A DNA stretch of 64,000 bases. It comes from Anthopleura xanthogrammica (lineage: Eukaryota; Cnidaria; Anthozoa; Actiniaria; Actiniidae). Both the position numbers and the translations under genes were made by a program. Each line of letters opens with the position of its first letter. Position 1 is the stretch's first letter. The stretch spans positions 5,220,453-5,284,452 of the forward strand of contig OZ025208.1 of the NCBI GenBank assembly GCA_964019055.1. Reading direction: 5' to 3'. This document shows, piece by piece, positions 40,549 through 57,675 of this stretch. The notes beneath the pieces were generated by a model. The model saw only the letters and a list, made by a program, of their open reading frames with translations, ran no database searches and had not been told where the DNA came from.

Positions 40549-40554
40549 CCGGAT

Positions 40555-41310
40555 AGTAGTAGGGAAATGAGAGTTCTAGGACAATGGATCTATTGTTCTT
40601 TCGGCGCCGGTCTAATTTTCGGGGGGAGGGGAGGGGTGGTTCAGGTCCAGCTATCGCGAAAAGATAAACCGACCGCCTGACCAAAAATTCCGGTCGAAAT
40701 CGGGGGGTGTTAAGACAGGGGGTGTGTTTTTAAGACAAAATTGAAAATCCTTTGTTTGAGCAACAGATGGTTTGAAGGTTAAAGTTATGAATTTTTTGTC
40801 TTCAACGATGTGACGGCAGACGTACTCCGTAGAAGAGAAAGAGTCCGAAAGATGTTCTTGCCCGATGAAATTTATTTACTCTACGAAAAATTAAGAATAT
40901 GACGATTATTGTATTTATTTTATTATGGTCTTTTGTTTAAACAGCTGGCGATTTGAAGAAAGCCGTGTTTTGAATAAATTAAAGTCGATAAACCTTCGTT
41001 TTCGTTCTGAAAATTTCTGTTACACTGACAAATGTTTTATTACTTAAACAGTAAAGTGAACATTATCGTTTCACACGGAAAAATCTTTTGTTCCAGAGGG
41101 TTTATTCAAGATAATAACTACACAGACAAGTCTTGAAAACATGTTTTATTGTTCATCGTATACTGTGTAAACATATTGTCAAAGTAGGCTGGATACAGCA
41201 AACATGAACGGTGTAAATGGTTTTGATTTGCATAGCTCATTCCAGTAAAAATCATCACGAACTAAAGCTTTTCCCACTTGGGTATTGACTTTGCGATCGC
41301 TCTCAATCGT
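40555..41310 (+). repeat. Polinton left terminal inverted repeat
   Basis: Pairs with 56912-57669. Visible differences from the right arm include GACGTACTCCGTAG versus ACGTATACTCGGTAG and CGCGAAAAGATAAACC versus CACGAAAAGACAGGCC. Its inner end carries a copy of the last codons of the ORF that ends at 56960. Confidence 0.9.
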
Positions 41311-41335
41311 CTTAGCCACTTTAAAAAAAAAAGTT

Positions 41336-42196
41336 TCATACAAGCATAGGAGGAATATGAGAGTCTGAGTTATATTCTTCGTCTATCTCTTCAGGTTTTT
41401 GAGTTATAACAAGAGGTTTTAACGTATTCGATTTTAAAGAAAGTGTATGCATTGAATCACAGTCTTTGCAACGATAAAACATTTGTTTTGTATTTTTGGT
41501 ATTAATAGCAAATGCGTTTGAGCAAACGTCACAAACGACTAATTCGTTTTGAGCACTGTGATACGCTTCATGCCAACAGCAATTCGGACATTGTGCCACG
41601 AATATCTTGGAAAACGATTTCGGTTCTTGACAAACGTGACACCCTCTTTCTTCTTCTTCTTCTTCGTCCTCACTCTCCGATTCTGAGTCCTCTTGCTCCT
41701 TACTGTCATTTTCCTCTTGGGATTCCTCAGTTTCGTTGTTACTTTCAGTTTCACTATCACTAGCATCCGTATCATAGTCATCCTCTGGCTGCCTAGTAAC
41801 CAGATCTGCCAATAGCATTTTGTTACGAATAAGATTCTTCTCCAAATCAAGCTCTGCCAATCCACTGGTAAAAGTTTTGAGCCCTCTTGGGGCCCTAACA
41901 TCTGGGTTGTAAGGCAGTAAAGCATATTCAATCAACTCTTTCATGTTGGTTACTGGAATTCTCCGCTGATGATGAGTCATTTCTCCATGGGAATTCCAAT
42001 ACAAGATATCTTTTGATGCTACCATACTATGAAGTAGATCCTGTGCTTTTTGTCGCGGTATGCTTTTAGGAAGTTGTCGTACCATTCGATTGATCTCATT
42101 CTCATCCGATTTTGAAAACAGCTCCTCCTCACCAGAGGAATCTTCGCTCAGCTCGGGTTCTGTAGATTCGTCTTCTGAAACTCTTCTTCTCTTCAT
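41336..42196 (-). CDS. Polinton accessory protein with four CxxC pairs
   Basis: 286-residue ORF of the Polinton. Residues 1-30 are charged (MKRRRVSEDESTEPELSEDS). A middle region (about 60-135) is followed by a long Glu/Ser/Asp tract (140-183) and a cysteine-rich region (about 185-250) with CHVC, CPNC, CDVC and CKDC, consistent with two zinc ribbons. The combination of an acidic tract and zinc ribbons resembles transcription-factor-like or regulatory accessory proteins, but I do not recognise the family. Its stop lies 26 bp inside the left terminal repeat's inner edge and it is transcribed toward that end. The intact frame suggests recent activity or a young copy. Confidence 0.75.
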   Translation of the reverse strand: MKRRRVSEDESTEPELSEDSSGEEELFSKSDENEINRMVRQLPKSIPRQKAQDLLHSMVASKDILYWNSHGEMTHHQRRIPVTNMKELIEYALLPYNPDVRAPRGLKTFTSGLAELDLEKNLIRNKMLLADLVTRQPEDDYDTDASDSETESNNETEESQEENDSKEQEDSESESEDEEEEEERGCHVCQEPKSFSKIFVAQCPNCCWHEAYHSAQNELVVCDVCSNAFAINTKNTKQMFYRCKDCDSMHTLSLKSNTLKPLVITQKPEEIDEEYNSDSHIPPMLV

Positions 42197-42245
42197 GATG
42201 ACCGCTACCAGTGAAATGAAGGTCTTGGAGGTTTGGCCGTGCTCT

Positions 42246-42611
42246 TTATAGCAGAAAAAGACTGAGAGCGCTCATTAGAGGAGGCAAGACCTCTCCCACG
42301 AAGCCTTCGCCTTTTTGGACCAGAATTTTTTTCTTGGTTTTGAATGGTACTGATGCATGAGCTAACGCTCTTATATTATCCTTGTGTGGCCTCAATCTTT
42401 CCTTTTGTCCTAGTGATATCGGAATTGTTCCTTGTAACAAATTATGGCATACTTCACTCATTACATGAACTTGTTCGGGAGTGGCAGTTGCAAGTAGATT
42501 CTTCCTTTGAGGTTCGGGACAGTGGGCTAAAAGATGCAAATAGCCAAAATTATCATGAAGCAATTGACTCATGTTTACTCCACTAAAGATGCATTGAAAT
42601 GAGCGTTCCAA
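42246..42611 (-). CDS. Small basic Polinton protein with hydrophobic C-terminus
   Basis: 121 residues: helical N-terminal part (LLATATPEQVHVMSEVCHNL), a basic middle (QKERLRPHKDNIRALAH, KTKKKILVQKG) and a hydrophobic tail (VLPPLMSALSLFLL). Small basic proteins with a C-terminal hydrophobic helix are common in Polintons and adintovirus-like elements, where they are thought to be virion core or membrane-active proteins. That role is inference. It is divergent in position from the zinc-finger ORF at 43391 and in series with the zinc-ribbon ORF (49 bp apart). Confidence 0.65.
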   Translation of the reverse strand: MERSFQCIFSGVNMSQLLHDNFGYLHLLAHCPEPQRKNLLATATPEQVHVMSEVCHNLLQGTIPISLGQKERLRPHKDNIRALAHASVPFKTKKKILVQKGEGFVGEVLPPLMSALSLFLL

Positions 42612-42649
42612 AGTTATACTTATGTACTTATAGTCGCGCTACTAACAGC

Positions 42650-43310: not shown

Positions 43311-43390
43311 ACGTTCTTATCAGTCTGGTTAACTCATGCTTAAATAGGCTTGCAACCTCCCTCTTACTTTCATTACTGAGTAGACTCGAG

Positions 43391-43642
43391 ATGGCTCGGA
43401 CGTGTTCTTTATGTCAGAAATCAGTTCAAAATTTATCATCCCACTTGAGTAGGGTCCACAAAATGAATGGTCCAGAACGCACATTTTGGTTTCAGCAAGG
43501 GAAAATATTCAAAGACGGTAACCATCTTTCTCAAAACACTGCCTCTCAGACAGGAAGCGGTCAAACAGTTCAATGTGCTAGATTTCAACTGCTGCATCCA
43601 TTTACTGCTTTAGTAGCTGGAATGACTGGATCTGCACAGTAA
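43391..43642 (+). CDS. Zinc-finger protein of the Polinton (83 aa)
   Basis: Short ORF whose N-terminus has a single C2H2-like finger: MARTCSLCQKSVQNLSSHLS followed by RVH, i.e. CxxC-x9-H-x4-H. The rest (about 30-83) is polar and ends near the start of the next repeat array. It is either a small accessory protein or the N-terminal remnant of a longer gene cut by the array; I favour a remnant because no domain follows the finger. Confidence 0.6.
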   Translation: MARTCSLCQKSVQNLSSHLSRVHKMNGPERTFWFQQGKIFKDGNHLSQNTASQTGSGQTVQCARFQLLHPFTALVAGMTGSAQ

Positions 43643-43658
43643 ATTTGATAGGGCTGAT

Positions 43659-44564
43659 TTGGCCCCACAGAGCCGTTTTGGCATTTTTAAAATAGTGCTA
43701 TTTTGGCCCAGAGATGGGTCAAAATGGAACAAAATGCTATTTTGGCCCCATGAAAGCCATTTTGGCATAGCTTTATTAGTACTGTTTTGGCCCAAGGGTA
43801 AGCCAAAAAAGAATAAGAGGCTATCTTGGCTCTACCACAGCCATTTTAGCCCTATTACATTTTGTGCTGTTTTGGCCCAAAGGCTGGCCAAAACGGGACG
43901 AGGGGCTATTTTAGTTTGCGGGAGCCATTTTGGCCTCATAACATTTAGTGCTGTTTTGGCCCAAAGGCCTACCAAAATGGGACGAGGGGCTATTTCAGTT
44001 TGCGGGAGCCATTTTGGCCTCATAACATTTAGTGCTGATTTGGCCCAAAGGCTGGCCAAAATGGGACGAGGGGCTATTTCAGTTTGCGGGAGCCATTTTG
44101 GCCTCATAACATTTAGTGCTGTTTTGGCCCAAAGGCTGACCAAAATGGGACGAGGGGCTATTTCAGTTTGCGGGAGCCATTTTGGCCTCATAACATTTAG
44201 TGCTGTTTTGGCCCAAAGGCTGGCTAAAACGGGACGAAGGGCTATTTTAGTTTGCGGGAGCCATTTTGGCCTCATAACATTTAGTGCTGTTTTGGCCCAA
44301 AGGCTGACCAAAATGGGACGAAGGGCTATTTCAGTTTGCGGGAGCCATTTTGGCCTCATAACATTTAGTGCTGTTTTGGCCCAAAGGCTGGCTAAAACGG
44401 GACGAAGGGCTATTTCAGTTTGCGGGAGCCATTTTGGCCTCATAACATTTGGTGCTGTTTTGGCCCAAAGGCTGGCCAAAATGGGACGAGGTGCAATTAT
44501 AGTTTGCGTGAGCCATTTTGGCCCTATTACATTTAGGGCTGTTTTGGCCCAAAGGGCTGTTTAA
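43659..44564. repeat. 84-bp minisatellite, about nine units
   Basis: Units contain TTTTGGCCCAAAGGCTGGCC and GCGGGAGCCATTTTGGCC. As 84 is divisible by three and the units lack stops in two frames, they give a 301-codon ORF on the plus strand and a 215-codon ORF on the minus strand, both purely repetitive (GSHFGLITFSAVLAQRLAK and its antisense). I treat neither as a gene. Confidence 0.93.
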
Positions 44565-45580
44565 GTTTACTATTTGCTAATTGGGTTACCATATAAAACA
44601 AAAGGTTAATTATAATATTATATCCTATATATAAAGCTGTTCTGGTTCTATCATGGGCTAAAATCTGTAAAATGGAAACCAAGGTGCTATTTTAGAATCC
44701 AGGGGGCCATTTTGGCTCCTTACATATCTTGTCTAAATTTGTTTTTTATTTTGAACTGATCGTGCAAATATTTTTTTGAAATATATAAATTACAAACTTT
44801 GCCGTAGCGAAAAAGCAATTTGAGTAAATATCATGTGATTGTATAGCCAATAACGTATATGAAATGCAAGCCTTCCCGAAAAAATGATCCCATAATTCAT
44901 TGCGTCCCGAAAGACCATGATTCTCAGCGGGGAAGGCATTTCAAAGCCCGCCATTTTCAAGAAGCATGGCCAACGACATGGTGAACAGTAGCTTCTTTAT
45001 GTGATTCTTTTAAACCCTTTTGGGTAAGAATATTGACTGAAACTCAGAAGAACGGCACTTAAGATGTTCAAGATCATTTTGGATCAGTTTTTTTTCCTTA
45101 AAGAAGGCTAAATTATCGGTGAGTGGATTATTTTAGCCGAACCTTTGTCCTTTGCCTTTAAAAGTTTACAACTGTAATAATAAACTTCATGGAGCTTCAA
45201 ATGTTTTTTTAGGGTTAATTTTTGATAATAGAAGCCGATGAATTGTGTAGAATTGTCTATGATTATCTGTGGTTTCGCTTTTTCAATACTTTTTAAGCTC
45301 ATGGTTTTGTTTGCTTCTACTTAGAGATGGAGATTACACATTATATATGGAGCAACAATTGACTACATACAGTCATGTAGAGTAAAGGAGTAGCAGCTAC
45401 TTGCAAGTATAAACTGATATACTCATAATATAAAGAATATACAATGTTTTCAGATAATTAGGTTTTTTTAGGTTTTTGACTAAATTGAAAATTCGCTTTT
45501 GTCTCTGATCGTGATTGCTATTTTTATTAAATCATGGTTTATACACTGTAAACAAGTCTTCAACAGTTATTTTAATATGA
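44565..45580. other. Polinton interior without recognisable gene
   Basis: AT-rich sequence with short ORFs only. In a complete Polinton, polymerase or capsid genes would occupy this region; none are detectable. Confidence 0.5.
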
Positions 45581-45599
45581 ATAAAAATGACTACACCGA

Positions 45600-46110
45600 T
45601 TATGGAGCAAAAAAGGCGATTTCCGGATCATTTAGTGGCTCTAGACATGGGATAAATTGGCCCCTATAAAATTGGGCCAAAAAACGGTCCTATTATTAAG
45701 GGCAAAAACGGCCCCGTCAAAAGAGGGCGGTATCCGGGTCAAAAATTGGCTCTAGACATGAGCTAAATTGGCCCCTATAAAATTGGGCCAAAAAACGGTC
45801 CTAATATTAAGGGCTAAAACGGCCCCGTCAAAAGAGGGCGGTATCCGGGTCAAAAATTGGCTCTAGACATTGGCTAAATTGGCCCCTATAAAATTGGGCC
45901 AAAAAACGGTCCTAATATTAAGGGCTAAAACGGCCCCGTCAAAAGAGGGCGGTATCCGGGTCAAAAATTGGCTCTAGACATTGGCTAAATTGGCCCCTAT
46001 AAAATTGGGCCAAAAAACGGTCCTAATATTAAGGGCTAAAACGGCCCCGACAAAAGAGGGCGGTATCCGGGTCAAAATTTTGGCCCCATTTTTGGGGCTG
46101 AAACGGCCCC
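45600..46110. repeat. 111-bp minisatellite, 4-5 units
   Basis: CTAGACATTGGCTAAATTGG recurs at 45641, 45752, 45863 and 45974, an exact 111-bp period; units also share GGGCCAAAAAACGGTCCT. 111 is a multiple of three, and the last unit is in frame with the ATPase ORF that follows. It shares TTGGGCCAAAA-type words with the 84-bp array. Confidence 0.93.
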
Positions 46111-46136
46111 GAACTGATTTACTGTGTGGTAAAACG

Positions 46137-46880
46137 GTTTGGGTTCAGAATCTGCTTAAGCATGCAACACAAGTTATAAGTCCGCCACCGCAGCGTATTG
46201 TATGGAGTTACTCACAATGGCAGCCAACTTACGACTACATGATGAAAACCATTCCTGGGATCGAGTTTGTGAAAGGCATACCCCATGATATTGACGAAGA
46301 TGGCTTCTTCGACCCTAGGATCAATAATGTGATTGTGATTGACGATCAAATGACCGAGACGTCCAACGACAAAAGAATCATGAATTTATTTACCAAGGGC
46401 TCTCATCATCGGAACCTCAGTGTCATTTTCCTGATGCAGAATCTTTACTTTCAAGGAAAAATCATGCGCACTCTGAGTCTAAATGCGGCATATCTTGTAC
46501 TATTCAAAAACCCAAGAGACAAGCTACAAATGATGACGCTGGGAAAACAAATGTATCCAGGCAAGTCAGAACAGTTCATTCAAAAGTACGAAGCGGCTGT
46601 ACAACGACCTTATGGATATCTTTTCGTGGACCTTAAACCCAACACACCAGAAGAATGCAGACTTCGAACTAACGTTCTCCCCGATGATCAACCTGTTTCT
46701 AAGACTAACCCACCCACAACAATATCACAGTATGGTGGACAATCAGATGTCACGCAATCTAATGCTAACTATTTCGAACGTCAAAGCTATTTGCAACTGC
46801 CTATATTAAAAACAATACAGAATTTAGAGGAGCAGATGACTAACATTCTAAGCGAACCCAATCTCCCCACAGAACTGTAA
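46137..46880 (+). pseudogene. Polinton packaging-type ATPase, C-terminal part, N-terminus lost and 3' end split
   Basis: FtsK/HerA-type (A32-like) ATPases power DNA packaging in Polintons and related viruses. The Walker B-like strand NVIVIDDQM and the downstream sensor region (IFLMQNLYFQGKIMRTLSL) are present, but no Walker A (GxxxxGKS) is found upstream: the frame instead runs into the 111-bp minisatellite. The open frame stops at 46880 only because an LTR retrotransposon begins there; the frame resumes at 56394. Both defects imply a non-functional product. Confidence 0.75.
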
Positions 46881-47155
46881 CAGGGTTCACTCAAACGTTT
46901 TATTTGATATAAAACTATACAAAATTCTCTACAAAACTAAGGGCGACAAGGCACAGTGATAGCACAAGATTGTAGTTACTTGCTCTAGGCGGTGAGCACT
47001 CCGAATGACTATTAAAATGATGCTAACTCCTGAGACCATGCGGTCTGGTTTGATTGACAGTTGTCAAATCAGCTAATGCAATTGGCTAACATACTTAAAC
47101 GATATATAATACTATATAAGCATTACAAAATGTATGCAAACTTCACTTGGCTACA
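46876..47155 (-). repeat. Gypsy 3' LTR (280 bp)
   Basis: TGTAACAGGGTTC...TTGGCTACA. Differs from the other LTR (56114-56393) at one visible position (CTATATAAGC here, CTATGTAAGC there). A purine-rich tract lies next to it at about 47156-47166 (minus strand GCAGGGGAGGC). Confidence 0.95.
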
Positions 47156-47272
47156 GCCTCCCCTGCTTATGAATTGTCGTCCTCGACAATCAGCAGTATT
47201 GGTGATGAACACCAATGAATCTATAAAAATCTGACTAGGCTAGATACCTAGATAATTGCCTAAGTATAATGC

Positions 47273-48655
47273 TTAGGAAAAGATACACTTAATTAACCAA
47301 ACTAGAATAATAATGTAAAATGTAGTGTCTCTAAATTCAGCATTCAGTTCATTAACACTCGAATTAGCTACTGTTCTTGGTTGTCTGTAAGGGTTGGGGT
47401 GCTTTCCTTTTGTTGACCTCGTAGATCTCCTTACTGTAGGTTGGACTGCAGGAGGTGTCTGTGGAACATCTGCATCAGGTTCATCTGAGCTTGAATGTAG
47501 ATCCACGTGGGAACATGGGCTGACTTGCACAAGGGGTGGGGTCTGTCGCCTGGGGTGCCTGAGAAGCAGCGTGAACTCTGTATCTGTGGAAAAAGAAGAA
47601 AAATCTGCATCCGGGTCTGCAACAGGTGTCTTCTCTGTGAGGGATCTTTTGGCGGTACTTGGTCTGTGCTGTATAACAGGCTGATTGTTGATGGGGCAGG
47701 GCTGTATTTCACGTCGGTTAACCTTTCTTGGTTGTGCTTCTCCATCTGCTCTCCTGACTGTATATGGCCCTCCATCGACGTTTGGGACTTCCTCAATGAT
47801 AAACATAGTTGGTTCCCATGCGTCCTGGATTTTGTTGCGACCCAGTACACGTTTCCTTAAGTATACCATGTCGCCAGTGTTCACCGTTGGGGCAAATAGT
47901 CTCTGATCGTGACGATCCTTCCTCTGTTGGGCAGCATGATGGGTGCGCTCCCCTGCTTTTTCCCACGCATATCTCAGACGGGTTTGATGAGCTGTGAGCC
48001 AATCGCCTACATTCTGGTTTCTGTCGTCCTCATGAGTGGTGGAATCCCCTTGATCCAACAGTATGTCGATAGGCAGTTGAGGCTCTCTTCCAAACAAGAG
48101 AGAGAAGGGACTGTAACCGGTTGACGAATGTGGTGTACAGTTGTATGCATACACCAGCTCAGGTAAGTAATCTGTCCATCGTTTCTTCTTTTCCGGAGGT
48201 AGACTTCGCAGTAGATCATGCATGGTACGGTTAAACCTTTCACATTGACCATTACCTTCAGGGTGATAGGGCGTGGTCCTACTTTTCTTTATGCTGTAAG
48301 TCTTGCATAACTCTTGGACAAGTTGACTTTCAAAATTCCGTCCCTGATCTGAGTGTATCCTCTGTGGTGCGCCATACTTTTGAAACCATTCTTTCAGCAA
48401 AACTTTAACTGTTGTAGTGGCCTTTTGGTCCTTTGTCGGTACTGCATGAGTGAACTTAGTGAAGATATCTGTCATCACCAGGACATTCTCCTTGCCGTCG
48501 CTCGATTTTTCTAAAACAGTAAAATCAATAGCAAGCACTTCAAGTGGTTTGGTGGCAATCAGTTTTCCCATGGGTACCCGTATTTTTGGTTGAGGCATCT
48601 TGGATAGTGTACAGCGGTGACAAGTTTTAATCCATGACTCGGTGTCTGCGTACAT
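47273..48655 (-). CDS. pol: Gypsy integrase part of pol (separated by LINE insertion)
   Basis: 460-codon open frame. The zinc-binding CHRC (residues 12-15) is the second half of the HHCC motif whose histidines lie across the LINE insertion. The catalytic triad is D44 (AIDFT), D103 (HSDQGRNF) and E139 (GQCERFN), giving the D-x35-E spacing of retroviral-type integrases. A GPY/F-like segment (GPYTVRRADG) follows around residue 300, then a proline-rich tail. The apparent Met start is not a true start: the frame is continuous with upstream pol and was cut by the LINE. Confidence 0.93.
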   Translation of the reverse strand: MYADTESWIKTCHRCTLSKMPQPKIRVPMGKLIATKPLEVLAIDFTVLEKSSDGKENVLVMTDIFTKFTHAVPTKDQKATTTVKVLLKEWFQKYGAPQRIHSDQGRNFESQLVQELCKTYSIKKSRTTPYHPEGNGQCERFNRTMHDLLRSLPPEKKKRWTDYLPELVYAYNCTPHSSTGYSPFSLLFGREPQLPIDILLDQGDSTTHEDDRNQNVGDWLTAHQTRLRYAWEKAGERTHHAAQQRKDRHDQRLFAPTVNTGDMVYLRKRVLGRNKIQDAWEPTMFIIEEVPNVDGGPYTVRRADGEAQPRKVNRREIQPCPINNQPVIQHRPSTAKRSLTEKTPVADPDADFSSFSTDTEFTLLLRHPRRQTPPLVQVSPCSHVDLHSSSDEPDADVPQTPPAVQPTVRRSTRSTKGKHPNPYRQPRTVANSSVNELNAEFRDTTFYIIILVWLIKCIFS

Positions 48656-48667
48656 AGCAGGCCAATA

Positions 48668-51600
48668 AGAAGAATAGGTTTATTGATCACTTTGTAAATT
48701 CGTGTGAATTTAAAAAACGTGATTTTACAACATATTATAAGAGATAATATTGAAGGATAACTATTATATACAAGTTGTAAATATGAGACATTAATCTATT
48801 GCGGTTTATCCCAGATGCTAACGCATTTAGGAATAAAACTGTTCTTATAACGTTCAGTCCTGCATTTGTACAACGGGAATTTTCGTGGATTTCTTAGACT
48901 GTAGTTGTGGGATGTGGCCAATGGAAGAAGTTTTCCAATCTTGTTATCTGGGTGTTGGTGAGATTTTTTATAAAGGATTAGGCACTGATCTTCTCTTCGT
49001 TGGTACAGTGTAGGCAGGTCAACGTGCTTCAGTGTAGCAGTATATGACGTCTGAGGAAAGGCAATCTTCAATGCACGTTTTTGAATGTGCTCGATTTGGT
49101 CAGAGAGAGTTTGTGAAAGAGAGAAGTGCCATACGGGACAAGCGTATTCTAAAATAGGGCGAATAAATGAACAAAAAACTGTTATCAGATCTTTGGCTGG
49201 GGCACCAGACCGCTTGAGAATTCTCAGAGCGTACAGCCGTTTACTTGCTTTGGTACATATGTAGTTAACGTGTGCGTTCCAGGTGAGGTTTGATGAGATT
49301 ACTACTCCCAAGAGTTTAAAATCTTCTACAATCTCAATTTCGGCACTAGTGGAAGAAAGGTTGTCAAATGCCAGGGGGTCTTTAAGGAAGGATACACGTA
49401 ATTCTTTAGTTTTAGAGACATTCAAACGCATGTTATTGCGGTCAGTCCAGTCGGTAATAGAGTCAATGTTAGCTTGAAGCGTTGAGTTCGGAGAAGATCT
49501 TGAAACGATTTCATAAACCGTACAGTCGTCGACATATTTGTATAATGGAAGATTAGTTTGCAAGTCATTGATCATCACGAGAAAGAAAAGGGGGCCAAGT
49601 TTTGTACCTTGTGGGACACCAGCGTTGATTGATCGCCAAGATGATTTATTCCGGCCAAGCTTAACACGCAAATACCGGTCATGTAAGAAATCAGCACACC
49701 AGTTCAACAAAATAGGAGGAGTATCAAGCATTTGTAACTTCCGAAGTAGAATGTTATGGTCAATGCGATCGAAGGCCTTGGAGAAATCAATCATGCAGCA
49801 TCTGATAGTTGAGCCAGGGTCGTCCAATGCTGCTAGCCATTGATGGATCAGATGGATAAGAGCATGTGTAGTAGAACAATTCTTGATATTTCCAAACTGG
49901 AAAGGGTCGATTGATGATTTGATGTGGTTAAAAAGCCAACGGAAAACAAAACCTTCTAGTAGTTTACTCAGAACAGGTGTGAGAGAGATAGGTCTGAGGT
50001 CACTGTCAACAGATTTTGGATTAGATATCTTGGGTAGAGGGAGAACATCAGCAGATTTCCAGAGTACTGGAACGCGGCTTTGTGCAATGCTAGCGTTAAA
50101 GATCGAGCATATTGGACCAGCAATCAGAGGCGCAGAAGTCTTCAGTACCCAGTTAGGGATGTCATCGGGACCGGTTGCTTTCTGAAGATTAATTTTTTCC
50201 AATTCCAATTCAACTTGACGAGGTGATATTATATATTCATCGGGAACAGAAGTGATGGGAAGCTTGTTGAACTGAAGTGGAGGCAAGCTGTTTGAGACGT
50301 TGCAAAAGGATTCTGCAATCAGATCAGCAAGTTCAGAACCTCTTTTGAACTCACCGTTATGGAAGATGCTTGAAAGAGGTTCCGATTTGGACATGCCAGA
50401 AATAGTCTTGATGTTGTTCCACCATTTTTTCGGGTTTGGTTCTCGGGTATTGAGGATTTTTTCATCGTAAAAGGACTTGCGGGCAGAATTACATAATTTT
50501 CTTACTTTGTTGCGGTAGAAGTTGTACTTAAGAGTATTACCAGTCGACCAAGCCTTTTGTCTTTTAGAGATAAGATTCTTGATATCTGCGGTAATCCAGG
50601 GTTTGTCTTTAGGATGGAACTTTATCGTGCGCAGAGGAAGATGGGTGTCAATAGCAGAGGATGTTATATTTGAGAAGAGAGCGAACTGGTCCTCTACTGC
50701 AGCTGTGTGGTAAAGGGGAGTCCAGTTGACTTTGGACAAAGTGGTAGATAGAGCTTGTCTGTTTGCAGGTCGGCAGTCTCTCTTAGTAGTGTAGACAGGA
50801 GTACACGGCGTAGGATTCTGCGTTGCAGGGCTGAGGAAAACACTTGAATGATCAGACTGACCAATACATGGGAGAATCGTGGCATCGATGTAGTGATTTG
50901 AAAGAGTAGTGTAGATTTTATCAAGGATATTACTACCACGAGTAGGTTTCTTTACCACTTGTTTAAGGTTGAAGGATGAGGTTAGGGATCCAGGGTTAAA
51001 CTTGTTGAAGTCTCCCAACAAGACAATTCCTGAATTAGGGAATTTAGCGAGAGCAATGTCTAGGGACTGGGATAGATGTTTCCTCAATTCAAGGTCGTTG
51101 TTTTGTGGAGGATGATAAACACTTGTCATTATGATTGAGTTGATTCCTCTTGGAAGTCTTTTAGGTTTTAATAAGAACCATTGTGTTTCAAATGCAGGGT
51201 CAGAGAGATCTTTTAAGTCCAGGAAGTCCAATGTATCTTTGATATAGGTACAAAGTCCACCACCACGTTGGTCGTCTGGTCGATCTTTACGAACAGAAAG
51301 AAACCCAGGAATCTTGATGAGGTCATTCGTGATATTTGATGATAGCCACGATTCTGTGATAACCGCAACATCGCAGTTATTATTAACAATGGTCGCATTG
51401 ATCTCATCTATCTTGTTAACCATTGAACGAGTGTTGCTCAAGAAAAATGTAGGAAAGTCATATGATTGTCGTGTTGTTGAAATCTTAGTTAATGACCGAG
51501 TATTTGAGAGTTGATCAGTATAGTTCCTGTGGACTTGAGATTCTGAGTCGAGTGAAGTGTAATCTTGAGTGTTTGATGAGCCAGAACGAAGATTATGCAA

Positions 51601-52017
51601 ATAAGATGTTGTTGTTGCTACGTTGGATTTCAAAGTTGAAGATTGAGATAAAGAAGTCAAATAAGACGGAGTACTTTTAGATTGGAGACTGGTTGTAGAT
51701 CGACATCCACGTCGTCCTCGAAATCGACGTAGAATTCCGAGATCTTTAATAGAGTTGAAGACTTGTGAGGTTAGCGGTCCAGTCGTTCGTGAACTGGTGA
51801 CATGGCGGGTAATTTGAAGTCCAAGCTGATCGGGAACTTTCCACCAAAGACACATTGAAAATAGAACGTTTCTTGAGTATTGTATCATATTTCATCACAC
51901 TAGGTTCTTATAAGTAATTAACTCGTAAAATAGAGTTAACTAGTCACTTGAACACGAATAAAACATTAATCTAACGGAGAGCGAAAATAAGCAGCCGATC
52001 AGTCAAGCGGCGCGTAG
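48668..52017 (-). mobile_element. LINE (non-LTR retrotransposon) nested in Gypsy pol
   Basis: About 3.35 kb between the two halves of pol. Gypsy sequence resumes at GCCAATA (ends 48667) and ATAACAACGG (from 52018), so any target duplication is at most about 3 bp. The 3' end (minus) finishes CTATTCTTCTT with no poly(A), more like CR1/L2-type elements than L1. Same orientation as the Gypsy element. Confidence 0.9.
48796..51888 (-). CDS. LINE endonuclease-reverse transcriptase
   Basis: An intact 1030-codon ORF. After a basic N-terminal region (RRFRGRRGCR near residue 55), an APE-type endonuclease runs from about 148 to 355 (ITESWL, GDFNKF, GQSDHS). The reverse transcriptase follows at about 490-830: RPISLTPVLSKLLEG, DFSKAFDRIDHNILL, GVPQGTKLGPLFFL and the catalytic box YKYVDDCTVYE near residue 780. 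The C-terminal part (RPILEYACPVWH, HIQKRALKIAF) is typical of CR1/L2/Rex-like LINEs. I see no separate ORF1. The uninterrupted frame suggests a young, possibly mobile copy; clade assignment is approximate. Confidence 0.95.
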   Translation of the reverse strand: MIQYSRNVLFSMCLWWKVPDQLGLQITRHVTSSRTTGPLTSQVFNSIKDLGILRRFRGRRGCRSTTSLQSKSTPSYLTSLSQSSTLKSNVATTTSYLHNLRSGSSNTQDYTSLDSESQVHRNYTDQLSNTRSLTKISTTRQSYDFPTFFLSNTRSMVNKIDEINATIVNNNCDVAVITESWLSSNITNDLIKIPGFLSVRKDRPDDQRGGGLCTYIKDTLDFLDLKDLSDPAFETQWFLLKPKRLPRGINSIIMTSVYHPPQNNDLELRKHLSQSLDIALAKFPNSGIVLLGDFNKFNPGSLTSSFNLKQVVKKPTRGSNILDKIYTTLSNHYIDATILPCIGQSDHSSVFLSPATQNPTPCTPVYTTKRDCRPANRQALSTTLSKVNWTPLYHTAAVEDQFALFSNITSSAIDTHLPLRTIKFHPKDKPWITADIKNLISKRQKAWSTGNTLKYNFYRNKVRKLCNSARKSFYDEKILNTREPNPKKWWNNIKTISGMSKSEPLSSIFHNGEFKRGSELADLIAESFCNVSNSLPPLQFNKLPITSVPDEYIISPRQVELELEKINLQKATGPDDIPNWVLKTSAPLIAGPICSIFNASIAQSRVPVLWKSADVLPLPKISNPKSVDSDLRPISLTPVLSKLLEGFVFRWLFNHIKSSIDPFQFGNIKNCSTTHALIHLIHQWLAALDDPGSTIRCCMIDFSKAFDRIDHNILLRKLQMLDTPPILLNWCADFLHDRYLRVKLGRNKSSWRSINAGVPQGTKLGPLFFLVMINDLQTNLPLYKYVDDCTVYEIVSRSSPNSTLQANIDSITDWTDRNNMRLNVSKTKELRVSFLKDPLAFDNLSSTSAEIEIVEDFKLLGVVISSNLTWNAHVNYICTKASKRLYALRILKRSGAPAKDLITVFCSFIRPILEYACPVWHFSLSQTLSDQIEHIQKRALKIAFPQTSYTATLKHVDLPTLYQRREDQCLILYKKSHQHPDNKIGKLLPLATSHNYSLRNPRKFPLYKCRTERYKNSFIPKCVSIWDKPQ

Positions 52018-54913
52018 TATAACAACGGTTTCTTGCAAGCTGGATGGTCCGTTCAAGTCCCTGATGTCCCATTTCATCATGAAGACTTGTGAGTACTTTG
52101 CCTTTGAGGCTTGATGGTAATACTAGTTGTTTCACTTCTTTCTGGTTATTGTCATGTGATAATCTGTACAATAAGCCATCGTGCATGGCCACCTTGTCCC
52201 ATTGTTTCAATAGTGTTTTTGCATTGGTAGATAGCTCTTTCCTCTCTTGTGAGTTTGGTTTGCGGCCTTTGTTCCAATACTGGTAAAACACTTTTATGTC
52301 TGCATCACTCTGCTGTAACGTTGCCAGGTCAGAGTTGGTGTAAGCTGGGAATGACAGGGTGGTATTTGGTCTTAGGTCATGAACATCGCGTTCCTTGACT
52401 GTTGGTGAAACTTGAGTTTGTGTTGATGATTGTACAATGTCAGGATCTGAAAGTAAGGTTTGTGGTTGAGCCGAGATGCGTAGCTGTTCTGCCACGACTT
52501 GAGGCAGTCTTGTGGTGTTGGTATGTGCACTCAGTACTTGAGCTACATGATCAGTTGACATCTCTGTGTTGTTGTCAGCTGCCTTGCGGGATAGCGCATC
52601 AGCATTGGTGTTTTCTTTACCTGGTCTGTAGTTGACTTTGAAGTTAAATGAGGCTAGTTGTGAAACCCACCGTTGTTCAACAGCTCCTAACTTAGCAGAA
52701 TTTAAATACTTAAGAGGATTGTTATCTGTATAGACCACAAACTCATTTCCTATCAGATAGCTCCTAAATTTCTCAGTCACTGCCCATTTTAGAGCAAGAA
52801 GTTCTAGCTTCATAGAGCTATAGTTCTCCATGTTTCTTTCGGGTGGCCTCAGGCGCCTACTTGCGTATGCGATAACATGTTTCTTACCCTCGTGGTTCTC
52901 CTGGGAAAGTACTGCCCCCAGTCCATGGTTGCTGGCATCTGTCTCAACTATAAATGGCTTACTGAAATCGGCATATCCTAGTACAGGTGTAGAAGTCAAC
53001 AGACATTTGAGATTGGCGAATGCGGCTTGATGTCCAGCAGCCCACCGTTCTGCAAATGGCGGACTAATGCGTTTGTTTACTTTCATGTCATGCAGGCACT
53101 TGTTCTGTAGATCATGTAGGGGTCCAGCAATCTTAGCAAAGTCTTTGATGAAGCGACGATAGTAGCTGGCAAATCCAAGAAATGAACGAAGTTCTTTCAC
53201 ACTGCATGGTACCTTCCATTCCTTAACTGCTGCAATCTTGTCTGGGTCTGTAGATACTCCTTTGTCTGAAACTGTGTATCCAAGGTAAGCAACACGCCTA
53301 CTTAGAAATGTACATTTCTCTGCCTTTATCTTAAGACCATGATGTGCAAGCCTTGTCAAAACTCTGTCTAATCTTGACAAGTGTTCTTCAAATGTCTCAG
53401 AGAAAACAATAATATCGTCGATGTACACTAAGAGAATCTGGAAGATTTGATCATTCAGGCAGCTTTGCATCAACCGTTGGAACGTTGCTGGAGCATTACA
53501 GAGCCCAAACGGCATCCGATTGTACTCAAATAATCCAAATGGAGTAATAAATGCTGTCTTCTGCTTATCTTCCTCTTCGACGGCTACTTGATTAAAGCCA
53601 CTAGCAAGATCAAGAGTTGTAAACCACTTCGCACCATTTAGAGCATCTAAGGACTCACAGATCCTTGGTAAAGGGAAACAATCTTTGACAGTTTTGGAGT
53701 TAAGCTTTCGGTAATCAACGCAAAGTCTAAGCGAGCCATTCTTTTTACGCACTAGAACTATTGGTGAGGCATAGGGGCTGTGACTTTCGCGAATAACTGA
53801 ACTGTCTATCAATTTTTGAATATGGTCCTTTACTTCCTGGTACTGTGATGGAGGTATCCGTCTGTAGGGCTGGGTCACTGGTATGTCGTCTGTTGTGCGT
53901 ATCTTGTGTCTTACTGTCTCCGTATAGCCTAGGTCGTCTGCACTGAACACTTGGGAATGTTTCCTAAGAAGCTCTGTCAAATCTTCCTTCTGTGCATGGT
54001 TAAGGTCTAGTCCTGACAGGTCACAAGGACATGTTTTAATTACTTCCTTGTCTTCTAACTCTTGTGCACCTTTGTTGGCTTTGACCTCTACCCTCGTTTC
54101 GTTTATGGACACTCTCTTAAAGTCAACATCAGAATCTATACTCTCTATACTATGTAGTACGCCTATCTTCATCCGCGGTTGAAGCCATACATCAGCATCG
54201 CTCAAGTTCGTCACCCGAACTCCAAACATACCTGCAGGTTTCACCAGGGTGTTGATAACACTCACTCTTGCATCACTAGAATTCTGGGTTGGCTCGACAA
54301 GCACCATGTCTTTGCTGTCGCTCTGACCATTCCAACCAGTCACCATCACTGTAGAGATAGAGTTTGCTGGGACGAGTACTGCCGTCTTCCCCGCAACACG
54401 TGCTGTACCTCTAACTGAGGTATTTGATTGGATGAAGGATGTTCGTAGGGCCTGGTTCCATGCTGCATCTAAGTCACCTAACTCTTTGTTTACAGCTTTG
54501 GATCTGAGCATTTTACTCAAAGGGCCAAGAACATTCATACCAACCAATCCTGGGATCTCTCTCTTCCGCTGTCTGGTTGAAAGGCTTGCTGGATCTTTGA
54601 CTACAAGAATCCCTCTCTGCTCTAGGATTACTCCTTCAACTTCAACATCCAATTCGATGTATCCTGCGTATGGAATCTCCAGTCCATTAGCAGCAGTTAA
54701 GGTTAACCAGCTACTAGCGGAAAGGAGAGTCTGTCCTTTTGGCTTGTAGTGAAGATTGAAAAACTCCTCTGTGATGGTGGTTACTTCTGAGCCAGTGTCA
54801 AGGAGGCTATTTACTGGAGTTCCACCAATCTTCACTACACTCACTGGACACTTTCCAATGGTTTTCTGACAAATATTGGAGCCAAGGTTGTCCCCTCCTG
54901 CTACCTGGCTCAA
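51971..54913 (-). CDS. pol: Gypsy pol: protease, RT, RNase H, integrase N-terminus
   Basis: 980 codons. The aspartic protease has DTGSEV near residue 39. The reverse transcriptase (about 330-560) includes LVYIDDIIVF near 496. RNase H follows (IAYASRRLRPPERN, YTDNNPLKY, about 640-760), then the start of the integrase zinc domain (EMGHQGLERTIQLARNRC). The frame then enters LINE sequence and stops, so the C-terminus is artificial. Pol is in the -1 frame relative to gag: the gag stop TGA overlaps the first pol codons and no ATG is needed, implying ribosomal frameshifting. Confidence 0.94.
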   Translation of the reverse strand: MSQVAGGDNLGSNICQKTIGKCPVSVVKIGGTPVNSLLDTGSEVTTITEEFFNLHYKPKGQTLLSASSWLTLTAANGLEIPYAGYIELDVEVEGVILEQRGILVVKDPASLSTRQRKREIPGLVGMNVLGPLSKMLRSKAVNKELGDLDAAWNQALRTSFIQSNTSVRGTARVAGKTAVLVPANSISTVMVTGWNGQSDSKDMVLVEPTQNSSDARVSVINTLVKPAGMFGVRVTNLSDADVWLQPRMKIGVLHSIESIDSDVDFKRVSINETRVEVKANKGAQELEDKEVIKTCPCDLSGLDLNHAQKEDLTELLRKHSQVFSADDLGYTETVRHKIRTTDDIPVTQPYRRIPPSQYQEVKDHIQKLIDSSVIRESHSPYASPIVLVRKKNGSLRLCVDYRKLNSKTVKDCFPLPRICESLDALNGAKWFTTLDLASGFNQVAVEEEDKQKTAFITPFGLFEYNRMPFGLCNAPATFQRLMQSCLNDQIFQILLVYIDDIIVFSETFEEHLSRLDRVLTRLAHHGLKIKAEKCTFLSRRVAYLGYTVSDKGVSTDPDKIAAVKEWKVPCSVKELRSFLGFASYYRRFIKDFAKIAGPLHDLQNKCLHDMKVNKRISPPFAERWAAGHQAAFANLKCLLTSTPVLGYADFSKPFIVETDASNHGLGAVLSQENHEGKKHVIAYASRRLRPPERNMENYSSMKLELLALKWAVTEKFRSYLIGNEFVVYTDNNPLKYLNSAKLGAVEQRWVSQLASFNFKVNYRPGKENTNADALSRKAADNNTEMSTDHVAQVLSAHTNTTRLPQVVAEQLRISAQPQTLLSDPDIVQSSTQTQVSPTVKERDVHDLRPNTTLSFPAYTNSDLATLQQSDADIKVFYQYWNKGRKPNSQERKELSTNAKTLLKQWDKVAMHDGLLYRLSHDNNQKEVKQLVLPSSLKGKVLTSLHDEMGHQGLERTIQLARNRCYTTRRLTDRLLIFALR

Positions 54914-56079
54914 GGCGACAGGGGGAGCCGGTTTGACGCTTGCTCCTGCTGGTGTGCTTCCCTGACTTGGGTTGGCTGGTCTGAAACTTGGGTGCTTTGC
55001 CTGGGGGGAGCTGGTCTTGCGTTAGGCCTCCTACTCCTGCAATCTCTGGCAATGTGGCCTTCGCGATTGCAATTGTAACAAGTGATCCTTCGTCTGCTTT
55101 GTGGCTGTGGATGTGGGTGGCGCTGTGGATGTGGCTGTGGATGTTGCTGTGGATGTGGCTGGGATGGACTGTATTGGTCTCTGAGAGCGAAAGCTGTAAG
55201 GGTTGCCGACAGTTTTTCCATGGATTTCCTTTGGTTCTCCAGCTCTTTATAGATCATGGCAAGTTTTGGGTCGTGGGCTTCCTGTGCTTCCGACGTTGCC
55301 ATGACTTCCTGCGTAGACACTGCGGCTCGTCTGTTGTTGTTCATTGGGCGCTCTTCTTCTTCGGACCATCGAAGCGCCTCCTCGCGAATTTCCAGGAATG
55401 TTGAGTCAGGTGTTGATCTTACCATTCGCTTTAGCTCTTTCCTAAGATGGCTGTCCTTTACATTGTCGGCGAATTGGTCGCGCAGTGTAGAATCTCGGTT
55501 GGCAATTGATGACGGACTTTTGCTGATTATTCTGTCCAACGATTCGGACAAGCCATGTGAGAAACCACGGAGAGTTTCGCCATCTCTCTGTCTTCTGTCG
55601 TAGAATGACCTTAGGAGTTGTGATACTGATCGCCTCTCTCCAAAAGCTGTACGTAGGAGAGCGAATAGCTTGGTCGCGTTATCTCTGTCGGTCTTGCTGT
55701 GTAACTTGATCTCTTCTTTCGCTTGGCCTTCGATCAGGGAGGTAATGAATGTCGCCTGTCCGTCCAAGGGAATTTGCCTCACTTTTATCGCAGCTTCCAC
55801 TTCTTCTATAAAGCCTTCCACTGTACTTTCTTCAGGATTGGTGCCCGTGAACGGCTTTATCTTCCGATCTCTGGATACGTAAAAAACACCGGGACTCTCT
55901 GCAGTTACCGAGGAATTTGAAGAATTCGCGTCCTTGTTTGAGGACGCGGACGTGTTGCCTGTTTTATTCTTCAATTTTTCGATTTCTAGTCTTAAACTAG
56001 CGATAACGTCTTCCATCGATTCGGCTCCCGCTCCTTGCTCTGCCGTCCCACTGGTACCATCGTCGCCCTCTGTAGACAT
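54910..56079 (-). CDS. gag: Gypsy gag with one CCHC knuckle
   Basis: 389 residues. The capsid-like central region (about 75-250) contains PFTGTNPEESTVEGFIEEVE and FGERRSVSQLLRSFYDR. A His/Pro/Gln-rich linker (PQPHPQRHPHP, about 305-325) precedes one nucleocapsid zinc knuckle CYNCNREGHIARDC (about 332-345) and basic RSRR. It starts 35 bp downstream of the 5' LTR and overlaps pol by 3-4 bases at its end. Complete and uninterrupted. Confidence 0.94.
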   Translation of the reverse strand: MSTEGDDGTSGTAEQGAGAESMEDVIASLRLEIEKLKNKTGNTSASSNKDANSSNSSVTAESPGVFYVSRDRKIKPFTGTNPEESTVEGFIEEVEAAIKVRQIPLDGQATFITSLIEGQAKEEIKLHSKTDRDNATKLFALLRTAFGERRSVSQLLRSFYDRRQRDGETLRGFSHGLSESLDRIISKSPSSIANRDSTLRDQFADNVKDSHLRKELKRMVRSTPDSTFLEIREEALRWSEEEERPMNNNRRAAVSTQEVMATSEAQEAHDPKLAMIYKELENQRKSMEKLSATLTAFALRDQYSPSQPHPQQHPQPHPQRHPHPQPQSRRRITCYNCNREGHIARDCRSRRPNARPAPPRQSTQVSDQPTQVREAHQQEQASNRLPLSP

Positions 56080-56113
56080 TTTGTTTTGTGCCCTGCTCGC
56101 AGCGCCAAAATTA

Positions 56114-56393
56114 TGTAACAGGGTTCACTCAAACGTTTTATTTGATATAAAACTATACAAAATTCTCTACAAAACTAAGGGCGACAAGGCACAGTGATAG
56201 CACAAGATTGTAGTTACTTGCTCTAGGCGGTGAGCACTCCGAATGACTATTAAAATGATGCTAACTCCTGAGACCATGCGGTCTGGTTTGATTGACAGTT
56301 GTCAAATCAGCTAATGCAATTGGCTAACATACTTAAACGATATATAATACTATGTAAGCATTACAAAATGTATGCAAACTTCACTTGGCTACA
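56114..56393 (-). repeat. Gypsy 5' LTR (280 bp)
   Basis: Transcription start side of the minus-strand element. Followed (minus) by TTTTGGCGCTGCGAGCAGGG, where TGGCGCTGCGAGC is the likely primer-binding site. Confidence 0.95.
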
Positions 56394-56960
56394 GAACTAA
56401 GAATGAAAGAATATTCGCCACTCTACAATCGATATCTCGATTTACAACAACAGATTCAAAGTGGTTCGCCCCACAGTTCAAGGCTAGGAACGGTGCAAAC
56501 CCCACAAGCACCACCATCAGCTAATCCCAGTCTTCCCACCAGTCTGAAATCTCCAGAAAATGTTTCTTCAACGAGTCTCACCAGTGATAGTGGCTACGTA
56601 ACCCCCAAAACTAAAACGCCTTCTTTCCTACAACGACTAACATCGAAAATAAGAACTCCTACTCTTGAACTCAGCAGAGCGGGAGCTTCAGCTTCAACGG
56701 GGGTACCTTCTACACCATTCAGAACCATAACTAGTCTTGATCAACCCTCTTCTACCACCTCGTTCAGCACCCCCAAAACACAATTCCCACCACCTCCGCC
56801 TGATTTTCTACCCACTCCCCCTACAAGTAAAGAAAAACCCGTGAAGTGGATTAGCTATCAAGATTCAGACAAATATCATGATAAAATCTTAAAACCTGCG
56901 CGACGATCAGAACGATTGAGAGCGATCGCAAAGTCAATACCCAAGTGGGAAAAGCTTTAG
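56394..56960 (+). pseudogene. C-terminal part of the Polinton ATPase-linked ORF
   Basis: Open frame that resumes in the same phase as the ORF interrupted at 46875. About 188 codons: a short helical start (YSPLYNRYLDLQQQIQ), then a Ser/Thr/Pro-rich low-complexity region (TSDSGYVTPKTKTPSFLQRL, PPPPPDFLPTPPTSKE) and a basic C-terminus (ARRSERLRAIAKSIPKWEKL). The last codons lie within the right terminal repeat. It may be the tail of the ATPase or a second protein fused to it. Confidence 0.65.
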
Positions 56961-57669
56961 TTCGTGATGATTTTTACTGGAATGAGCTATGCAAATCAAA
57001 ACCATTTACACCGTTCATGTTTGCTGTATCCAGCCTACTTTGACAATATGTTTACACAGTATACGATGAACAATAAAACATGTTTTCAAGACTTGTCTGT
57101 GTAGTTATTATCTTGAATAAACCCTCTGGAACAAAAGATTTTTCCGTGTGAAACGATAATGTTCACTTTACTGTTTAAGTAATAAAACATTTGTCAGTGT
57201 AACAGAAATTTTCAGAACGAAAACGAAGGTTTATCGACTTTAATTTATTCAAAACACGGCTTTCTTCAAATCGCCAGCTGTTTAAACAAAAGACCATAAT
57301 AAAATAAATACAATAATCGTCATATTCTTAATTTTTCGTAGAGTAAATAAATTTCCTCGGGCAAGAACGTCTTTTGAACTCTTTCTCTTCTACCGAGTAT
57401 ACGTTTGCCGTCACATCGTTGTAGACGAAAAATTCATAACTTTAACCTTCAAACCATCTGTTGCTCAAACAAAGGAATTTCAATTTTGTCTTAAAAACAC
57501 ACCCCCTGTATTAACACCCCCTGATTTCGATCGGAATTTTTGGTCAGGCGGTCGGCCTGTCTTTTCGTGATAGCTGGACCTGAACCACCCCTCCCCTCCC
57601 CCCGAAAATTAGACCGGCGCCGAAAGAACAATAGATCCATTGTCCTAGAACTCTCATTTCCCTACTACT
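56912..57669 (-). repeat. Polinton right terminal inverted repeat
   Basis: Reverse complement of 40555-41310 with scattered differences; ends CCCTACTACT followed by the target duplicate CCGGAT. Confidence 0.9.
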
Positions 57670-57675
57670 CCGGAT

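What the first reader, a model, noticed from the sequence alone, without database searches (positions are those of the whole stretch)
40549..57675. Three-layer nest: LINE inside Gypsy inside Polinton
A Polinton with 756-bp terminal repeats and perfect CCGGAT 6-bp duplication carries a Gypsy element (LTRs 46876-47155 and 56114-56393, 4-bp GAAC duplication), which itself carries a LINE (about 48668-52017). The order of insertion is fixed by the nesting. LTRs differ at one visible base and the LINE ORF is intact, so the two inner events look recent.
Basis: seen in the sequence. Interest (0 to 1): 0.8.

Follow-up and report, generated by a model that had tools for sequence, protein, structure and literature searches.

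The report
Nested transposons inside a mini-Polinton
In what looks like a sea-anemone chromosome, a retrotransposon sits inside a second retrotransposon inside a small virus-like DNA element, with a fourth insertion beside them, and that small element turns out to be a short form of Polinton whose relatives have kept a packaging-type ATPase gene but not the genes for copying, inserting and coating themselves.

Summary
The nest is real. All three junctions have exact target duplications: CCGGAT for the outer element, GAAC for the Gypsy, ATAA for the LINE. Natural empty sites elsewhere in the same genome confirm the inner two. The LINE copy has 0 private differences in 3321 bp. The terminal repeats cannot date the outer element, because all 18 of their differences lie in one ~220-bp tract.

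The outer element is not a complete Polinton. Subtracting insertions leaves 5099 bp, matching intact 4971- and 4994-bp siblings with perfect 6-bp duplications and three genes: an acidic zinc protein, a 108-aa protein and an A32-like ATPase. A second mini family (5.68 kb; ATPase frame read, small genes by DNA match) shares terminal repeats with 11.3-kb capsid/integrase elements. ATPase dN/dS between mini families is 0.11-0.16. I read these as long-lived non-autonomous Polintons mobilised in trans; whether they are true packaging satellites is open.

The parts
40549..40554 (.). 6-bp target duplication CCGGAT, left copy of outer element
40555..41310 (+). left terminal inverted repeat of the outer mini-Polinton (756 bp, tip AGTAGTAGGGAA)
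41336..42271 (-). ORF, acidic zinc-ribbon-like protein (286 aa from its first Met); the name is from reading the sequence
   Evidence: no Pfam family above cut-off
42246..42572 (-). ORF, conserved 108-aa protein; a 36%-identical homolog lies in a polymerase/capsid-bearing Polinton of the same genome
42647..43301 (.). tandem repeats (31-bp and related units) between the two gene blocks
43391..43634 (+). first part of the A32-like ATPase gene (zinc finger up to the start of Walker A), ends at insertion 4
43633..43634 (.). 2-bp target duplication TG, left copy, of the fourth insertion
43635..46126 (+). fourth insertion: 2492-bp non-autonomous DNA transposon, ends CACAGTAAAT/ATTTACTGTG, internal 84-bp and 111-bp minisatellites; three other complete ~100% copies listed
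46127..46128 (.). 2-bp target duplication TG, right copy
46127..46875 (+). middle part of the ATPase gene (Walker B region), between insertion 4 and the Gypsy
46872..46875 (.). 4-bp target duplication GAAC, left copy
46876..56393 (-). Gypsy LTR retrotransposon with the LINE inside (LTRs 46876-47155 and 56114-56393)
47276..48679 (-). Gypsy integrase ORF (rve), cut from the rest of pol by the LINE within the H2C2 zinc-binding domain
48665..48668 (.). LINE target duplication ATAA, left copy
48669..52018 (-). full-length LINE (endonuclease + reverse transcriptase), 3350 bp
52019..52022 (.). LINE target duplication ATAA, right copy
51974..55021 (-). Gypsy protease-RT-RNaseH part of pol
54913..56124 (-). 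Gypsy gag ORF with CCHC zinc knuckle
56394..56397 (.). 4-bp target duplication GAAC, right copy
56394..56957 (+). last part of the ATPase gene (fast-evolving C-terminal tail)
56912..57669 (-). right terminal inverted repeat (758 bp) with the divergent tract of about 220 bp
57670..57675 (.). 6-bp target duplication CCGGAT, right copy

Best explanation
Four successive transposon insertions in the genome of a sea anemone related to Actinia. First, a ~5.1-kb non-autonomous 'mini-Polinton' integrated with a 6-bp duplication; its replication and integration enzymes came in trans from larger Polintons with the same tip (inferred). Its ATPase gene was then hit twice: by a 2492-bp CACTA-like DNA transposon at the Walker-A codons and by a Gypsy element about 250 codons further on (order of these two unknown). 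Last, a LINE inserted, by target-primed reverse transcription (inferred), into the Gypsy pol region within the integrase zinc-binding domain. Shown: boundaries, duplications, empty sites, order, sibling copies, gene content of two siblings, and selection on the ATPase among mini forms. Inferred: which helper acts, and what the ATPase does.
For: Boundaries and duplications. Empty sites: Gypsy, 3 of 5 paralogs examined; fourth insertion, 2 of 2 paralogs read across the site, and a third is contiguous there by search; LINE, 1 of 1. LINE family: 4 full-length copies differing by 4-11 substitutions, and 34 of 44 listed matches (full-length ones included) reach the 3' end; window copy 0 private columns. 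Fourth element: three other complete copies, 2-bp duplication in 4 of 4. Outer element: 17115 minus 9522 minus 2494 = 5099 bp versus 4971 and 4994 bp in siblings; 6-bp duplication perfect in 5 of 7 family pairs with both tips, the window included; three ORFs in both siblings read through; tip identical 24/24 to a 15.6-kb polymerase- and capsid-bearing element, C18:712427-728056. ATPase dN/dS 0.11-0.16 in 5 comparisons between mini families; within the window family, core 12 synonymous versus 7 nonsynonymous changes, p=8.7e-5.
Against: No reads were available, so assembly error at the junctions is untested. In 2 of 7 family pairs the 6-bp duplication is imperfect (C5:13.87 Mb, 5 of 6 bases) or absent (C11:8.69 Mb), and in an eighth pair (C7:12.34 Mb) one tip is missing. 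The fourth element's superfamily rests on its tip and duplication length alone. The ATPase tail shows no constraint (2 synonymous, 13 nonsynonymous), nor does its first part (0 and 2). Minis without the ATPase (C21:5341051, C19:8754644) also have perfect duplications, so the gene is not needed in cis for integration.
Confidence: 0.9

Rival explanations
1. The outer element is simply an eroded full-length Polinton that lost its core genes after insertion; the nest is ordinary and nothing about the element is special.
For: Most vertebrate Mavericks are reported degraded (passages of PMC8097293), and several partial copies exist here.
Against: Two siblings at unrelated sites have the same 5-kb layout with perfect duplications and open genes, and the window copy minus its inserts has their size, so the short form itself transposed. 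A second short family (C12, C8, C5:10.486 Mb) repeats this.
Confidence: 0.05
2. The mini forms are recurrent deletion derivatives of full-length Polintons; the ATPase looks constrained only because it was constrained in full-length ancestors.
For: A 3.9-kb element (C21:3592930, duplication TGTGAC) has the ends and ATPase of the 11.3-kb capsid-bearing elements and room for little else, so deletion derivatives do arise. The closest database ATPase (P0001) and a 108-aa relative (P0188) are both listed with a 16,562-bp contig, which could be a full-length element of another species; its layout I cannot see.
Against: Two families with resolved ends share the same gene-block order directly inside the repeats, at ATPase dS near 1, and the window family's ATPase core still looks constrained after the short form existed (12 synonymous vs 7 nonsynonymous).
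Confidence: 0.35
3. The nest is an assembly chimera of repeats.
For: All four families have close copies elsewhere.
Against: Each junction has an exact duplication of the length expected for its class, the left outer flank is single-copy, and each inner insertion has a matching natural empty site.
Confidence: 0.03

Closest known systems
Polinton/Maverick elements (Polintoviruses)
   Same: 6-bp duplication, long terminal inverted repeats, AGTAGT tip (the (AGT)2 end-motif quoted in passages of PMC8097293), A32/FtsK-like ATPase
   Different: About 5 kb instead of 15-20 kb; no polymerase, integrase, protease or capsid gene
Retrotransposons nested in endogenous virophages of Cafeteria (Ngaro in EMALEs; PMC8547959, passages seen)
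   Same: Retrotransposon inside an integrated Polinton-related virus, some within its genes
   Different: There the inserts are tyrosine-recombinase Ngaros in a protist; here an LTR Gypsy carrying a LINE, plus a DNA transposon, in an animal
Gypsy (Ty3-like) LTR retrotransposons
   Same: TG...CA LTRs, gag with CCHC knuckle, protease-RT-RNaseH-integrase order, 4-bp duplication
   Different: Short 280-bp LTR; some relatives in the same genome carry about 375-420 bp more
EN-RT LINE retrotransposons
   Same: Endonuclease plus RT, 5'-truncated siblings, microsatellite-like 3' tail (ATTCT)n
   Different: Clade not determined
EnSpm/CACTA DNA transposons (recalled)
   Same: CAC tip, 2-bp duplication
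   Different: No transposase in the element; superfamily not tested
Phage satellites such as P4 and PICIs (recalled, by analogy only)
   Same: Small element that lacks structural and replication genes but keeps a packaging-related gene
   Different: Animal host, Polinton ends; packaging not shown

Membership tests
Polinton/Maverick | 6-bp target duplication | tested here: met
   window CCGGAT; perfect in 5 of 7 family pairs with both tips
Polinton/Maverick | long terminal inverted repeats with AGT-type tip | tested here: met
   756/758 bp, AGTAGTAGGGAA
Polinton/Maverick | protein-primed PolB | tested here: not met
   no such ORF or Pfam match among the outer element's ORFs; none between the repeats of the 4971/4994-bp siblings
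Polinton/Maverick | RVE integrase of its own | tested here: not met
   among nine ORFs of 40555-57669 scanned, the only rve match belongs to the Gypsy
Polinton/Maverick | capsid proteins and adenovirus-type protease | tested here: not met
   no further ORF of that size in the outer element or between the siblings' repeats
Polinton/Maverick | FtsK/A32-like packaging ATPase | tested here: met
   intact sibling ORF matches PF04665 at 23.1 bits (cut-off 22.8); in the window copy the gene is cut twice
Polinton/Maverick | 15-20 kb length | tested here: not met
   5099 bp without inserts; size range from a passage of PMC4028283
Gypsy LTR retrotransposon | LTRs, duplication, PR-RT-RH-INT order | tested here: met
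LINE (EN-RT) | AP-type endonuclease and RT | tested here: met
   PF03372 and PF00078
LINE (EN-RT) | target duplication and 3'-anchored, 5'-truncated copies | tested here: met
   34 of 44 listed matches reach the 3' end
EnSpm/CACTA | CAC tip and 2-3 bp duplication (recalled) | tested here: met
   2-bp duplication in 4 of 4 complete copies
EnSpm/CACTA | CACTA-type transposase | not tested
   element looks non-coding; no partner was sought
Packaging satellite of Polintons | shares ends with a helper that has polymerase and capsid | tested here: met
   C18 element, tip 24/24, one repeat 96% over 218 bp, the other 86% over 240 bp; polymerase and capsid-like genes by DNA match only
Packaging satellite of Polintons | DNA found in helper particles | not testable with these tools
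   no particle data

The most novel reading that the evidence does not exclude
Sea anemones carry an old lineage of mini-Polintons that are true satellites of Polinton-type viruses: they keep a packaging ATPase, a 108-aa protein and an acidic zinc protein, and borrow polymerase, integrase and capsid from helpers with the same terminal repeats. It may go further, to a Polinton genome split over co-mobile elements: near-identical 11.3-kb elements hold capsid-like, protease and integrase genes but no polymerase in the pieces read, and share their repeats with the 5.68-kb mini elements.
Probability: 0.3. Interest if true: 0.85.

Novelty: new variant of a known kind. Interest (0 to 1): 0.55.

Why it matters
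The nest itself is a clean, orderable case of four transposon families striking one locus, with internal empty sites that make most steps checkable. The larger point is the outer element. If short Polintons with a conserved packaging ATPase are a stable lineage, then Polintons have satellites or split genomes as phages do, and that gives an animal system in which to ask whether Polintons really form particles, a long-standing open question.

Tried and rejected
Terminal-repeat dating of the outer element: rejected, because all 18 differing columns lie in one tract; 0 of 200000 random draws of the 16 substitutions gave so small a span. Long/short LTR forms as an insertion with duplication: rejected; the 4-bp overlap seen looks like alignment extension, and in the one long LTR read (L006) the extra ~420 bp has no terminal repeats by eye. 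C19:8754644-8755546 as a snap-back hairpin: rejected; its right arm differs from its left arm at the tip, so a simple internal deletion fits better. Calling the 108-aa protein 'PY': rejected, since PY is the predicted major capsid protein in PMC4028283 (section title and passages). A fourth mini family (C2:11198263, C3:15756635) has the same gene block but an unresolved left end, and the third (C21:9.55 Mb, C1:19.78 Mb) has unresolved tips, so only two families are claimed with resolved ends. No viral contigs relative of the ATPase was found. PDB sequence search of the capsid-like protein: 0 matches, and Pfam and PHROGs gave none for it; its identity as a capsid protein is recalled from gene neighbourhood and sequence look, not tested. 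Literature searches: 0 papers of the held library contain any of six phrases for non-autonomous or mini Polintons or Mavericks. Rfam: 0 matches in the window at gathering thresholds.
Full report
WHAT WAS CLAIMED.

OBSERVATION. Every element is there. The inverted repeats are 756 and 758 bp, begin AGTAGTAGGGAA and are flanked by CCGGAT on both sides. The LTRs are 280 bp, begin TG and end CA, are flanked by GAAC, and differ at one base; the odd base is in the left LTR, since the other window LTR and both LTRs of the second full-size Gypsy agree. Gag, protease, RT, RNase H and integrase domains are present on the - strand (the protease match is a little under its cut-off). The LINE occupies 48669-52018 and encodes endonuclease and RT in one open frame. 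It splits the Gypsy's integrase zinc-binding domain, whose two parts match on either side.

EMPTY SITES. The genome contains its own controls. Of 5 loci (the window's own left out) that match the outer element right of the Gypsy, 3 (L014, L015, L027) continue straight across the Gypsy site with exactly GAAC shared; one (L017) has a different ~870-bp insert within a few bases; one (L010) lacks the left side. The Gypsy copy at C2:10778583-10784752 lacks the LINE and reads CCAATAACAACGG at the site, which fixes the LINE duplication as ATAA. Its length (6170 bp) agrees with the window element minus LINE, duplication and a 6-bp length difference.

A FOURTH INSERTION. In siblings on C2 and C5 the ATPase frame runs through a Walker-A motif; in the window it breaks there, and 2492 bp begin CACAGTAAAT and end ATTTACTGTG, with TG on both sides. 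Three other complete copies at ~100% (rounded) identity are listed (C18, C9, C1; 40 of 71 candidates were scored), and all four complete copies have matching 2-bp flanks: AA, TG, CA, and TG in the window. Tip and duplication resemble EnSpm/CACTA elements (recalled); no transposase was sought.

AGES. The LINE family has four full-length copies that differ by 4 to 11 substitutions; 34 of the 44 listed matches, these four included, reach the same 3' end. The window copy has 0 private columns over 3321 bp; by a Poisson bound that is under 0.09% divergence since insertion. The LTR difference is 1 of 280. For the outer element, the two repeats differ at 16 substitutions and one 2-bp gap, all within alignment columns 106-325, and are identical in the rest. 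Of the 18 right-hand states in that tract, 15 occur in other family members and 3 are private. So a tract was most likely exchanged, and the rest gives no sign that the outer insertion is much older than the inner ones. Mutation rate and calendar age are unknown.

WHAT THE OUTER ELEMENT IS. Its length without the Gypsy and the fourth insertion is 5099 bp. Siblings at C2:14036586-14041556 (4971 bp, ATTTTA) and C5:15880774-15885767 (4994 bp, GGGGGC) have the same layout. Between their repeats they contain three open genes: an acidic zinc-ribbon-like protein (275/272 aa), a 108-aa protein, and an ATPase of about 500 aa with Walker A and B. The ATPase matches PF04665 just above the cut-off (23.1 vs 22.8 bits) and has 2766 relatives at E <= 0.001 in the database (120 listed), the best named ones from the anemone Actinostola (searched with the window's C-terminal part). 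A host gene in the window is 84% identical to one of Actinia tenebrosa (97% to an unnamed record), so the host is probably an actiniid anemone. In the outer family, 5 of 7 element pairs with both tips have a perfect 6-bp duplication, one has 5 of 6 bases and one none; in an eighth (C7) a tip is missing.

RELATIVES IN THE SAME GENOME. A second mini family has 1169-bp repeats and 5675-5677-bp copies at C12:2120537 (AACGGA), C8:6854669 (GTCGAC) and C5:10486019 (CAGGGA). Its ATPase frame was read in the C12 copy; its small genes are inferred from DNA matches of 66-67% to the window's block, not read. The first 600 bp of its repeats are 99-100% identical to those of 11.3-kb elements at C5:10889200 (CGTAGG), C9:12118825 (CACGAA) and C100 (CCTCTT). 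Of the eight elements with this repeat whose ends I read, seven have perfect duplications; in C12:9734338 the tip was not found. Pieces of the C5 11.3-kb element encode an ATPase 36-37% identical to the mini ones, a protein that by reading resembles the 108-aa one, an adenovirus-type protease (PF00770, E 6e-4, just under the cut-off), two capsid-like proteins (recalled, untested) and an integrase with chromodomain (PF00665 E 9e-15). No polymerase was seen; apart from the end repeats the unread gaps are 300-450 bp each. The split is not clean everywhere: the 11.2-kb element C12:9734338-9745532 does contain matches to the mini gene block. A 3.9-kb element with the same repeats (C21:3592930, TGTGAC) holds the ATPase of the 11.3-kb kind. 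Polymerase-bearing elements exist: C3:5511962-5529607 (CAGGGT; phage DNA-polymerase profile E 3.6e-8) and, by 97% DNA match, C18:712427-728056 (TTCAAC); the C18 tip equals the window tip in 24 of 24 bases. DNA searches miss diverged genes, so the counts of polymerase and capsid loci are lower bounds.

SELECTION. Between mini families the ATPase has dN/dS 0.11-0.16 at dS about 1 in the 5 between-family comparisons (0.15-0.16 for the two families with resolved ends; the third family's ends are unresolved). Within the window family (three copies; the first stretch in two), the core has 12 synonymous and 7 nonsynonymous changes (p=8.7e-5), the tail 2 and 13, the first stretch 0 and 2, and the whole 14 and 22 (p=0.02). 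I read this as constraint on the ATPase core in elements that were already short. Against it: counts are small, ATPase-free minis with perfect duplications exist, and unseen full-length relatives could carry the constraint.

MECHANISM. Polymerase and integrase supplied in trans by larger Polintons copy and insert the mini element (inferred from shared tips and duplications). A CACTA-like element and a Gypsy then hit its ATPase gene independently; their order is not resolved. The LINE entered the Gypsy last. This window copy therefore should not make the intact ATPase or the intact Gypsy polyprotein (inferred).

COMPARISON AND NOVELTY. Nested transposons are common knowledge. Retrotransposons inside Polinton-related viruses are reported for Ngaro in endogenous virophages (PMC8547959, passages). 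A different Gypsy also sits inside the C3 Polinton here (71-bp LTR and TGGCC duplication by reading), so the combination recurs. Length 15-20 kb and gene set of Polintons are from passages of PMC4028283; end motif, 6-bp duplication and size range in vertebrates are from passages of PMC8097293. I found no account of a stable three-gene mini-Polinton in the ten paper searches named in Tried and rejected, which I judged by their listings and a few passages; most subscription journals are not in that library, and Repbase was not searched.

Noticed in passing
C21:5341051-5343802 (L019, L020): 2.75-kb left-left palindromic derivative: both arms carry the left repeat plus the same left-end sequence and the same internal deletion; 2 mismatches in the first ~1.2 kb of the arms; duplication GGCGTG. 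Suggests end-duplication during replication.
   Followed up: partly
C19:8754644-8755546 (L018): 903-bp element: one full repeat plus 150 bp of the other, perfect CTCACT duplication; a minimal mobile form.
   Followed up: partly
C5:13871997-13878868 (L017): A different ~870-bp element with inverted ends sits within a few bases of the position where the Gypsy sits in the window copy.
   Followed up: partly
C3:5512200-5517200 (L061): A second Gypsy family (about 71-bp LTRs, TGGCC duplication, by reading) inserted near the end of a polymerase-bearing Polinton.
   Followed up: partly
C3:5511962-5529607 and C3:5668578-5686219: Same 6-bp duplication and nearly the same length 157 kb apart: a segmental duplication or assembly duplicate carrying the Polinton.
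   Followed up: no
L005-L008 versus window 46876-47155: Five LTR relatives (C9, C3 twice, C1, C10) have 375-420 bp more between their two matching parts than the window and C2 copies; only one (L006) was read.
   Followed up: partly
C5:10889200-10900492, C9:12118825-12130088, C100:9626-20921: Three near-identical 11.3-kb Polintons; pieces read from the C5 copy hold capsid-like, protease and integrase genes but no polymerase.
   Followed up: partly
C8:4950153-4954211, C5:10218349-10222407, C9:7271129-7279786, C6:11251106-11259767: Inverted pairs of a zinc-finger stretch spanning about 4.06 kb (C8, C5) and 8.66 kb (C9, C6), the longer pairs enclosing polymerase-like matches: further Polinton families.
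   Followed up: no
C2:11195900-11201400, C3:15754400-15759600: Fourth family with the same gene block plus an extra 275-codon ORF; its left end as aligned lacks the AGTAGT tip.
   Followed up: partly
window 11462-14221: Single long host ORF; closest homologs carry F5/8-type C and CUB domains, 84% identical to one of Actinia tenebrosa.
   Followed up: partly
window 39651-39865: 47-bp imperfect inverted repeat just outside the outer element.
   Followed up: no
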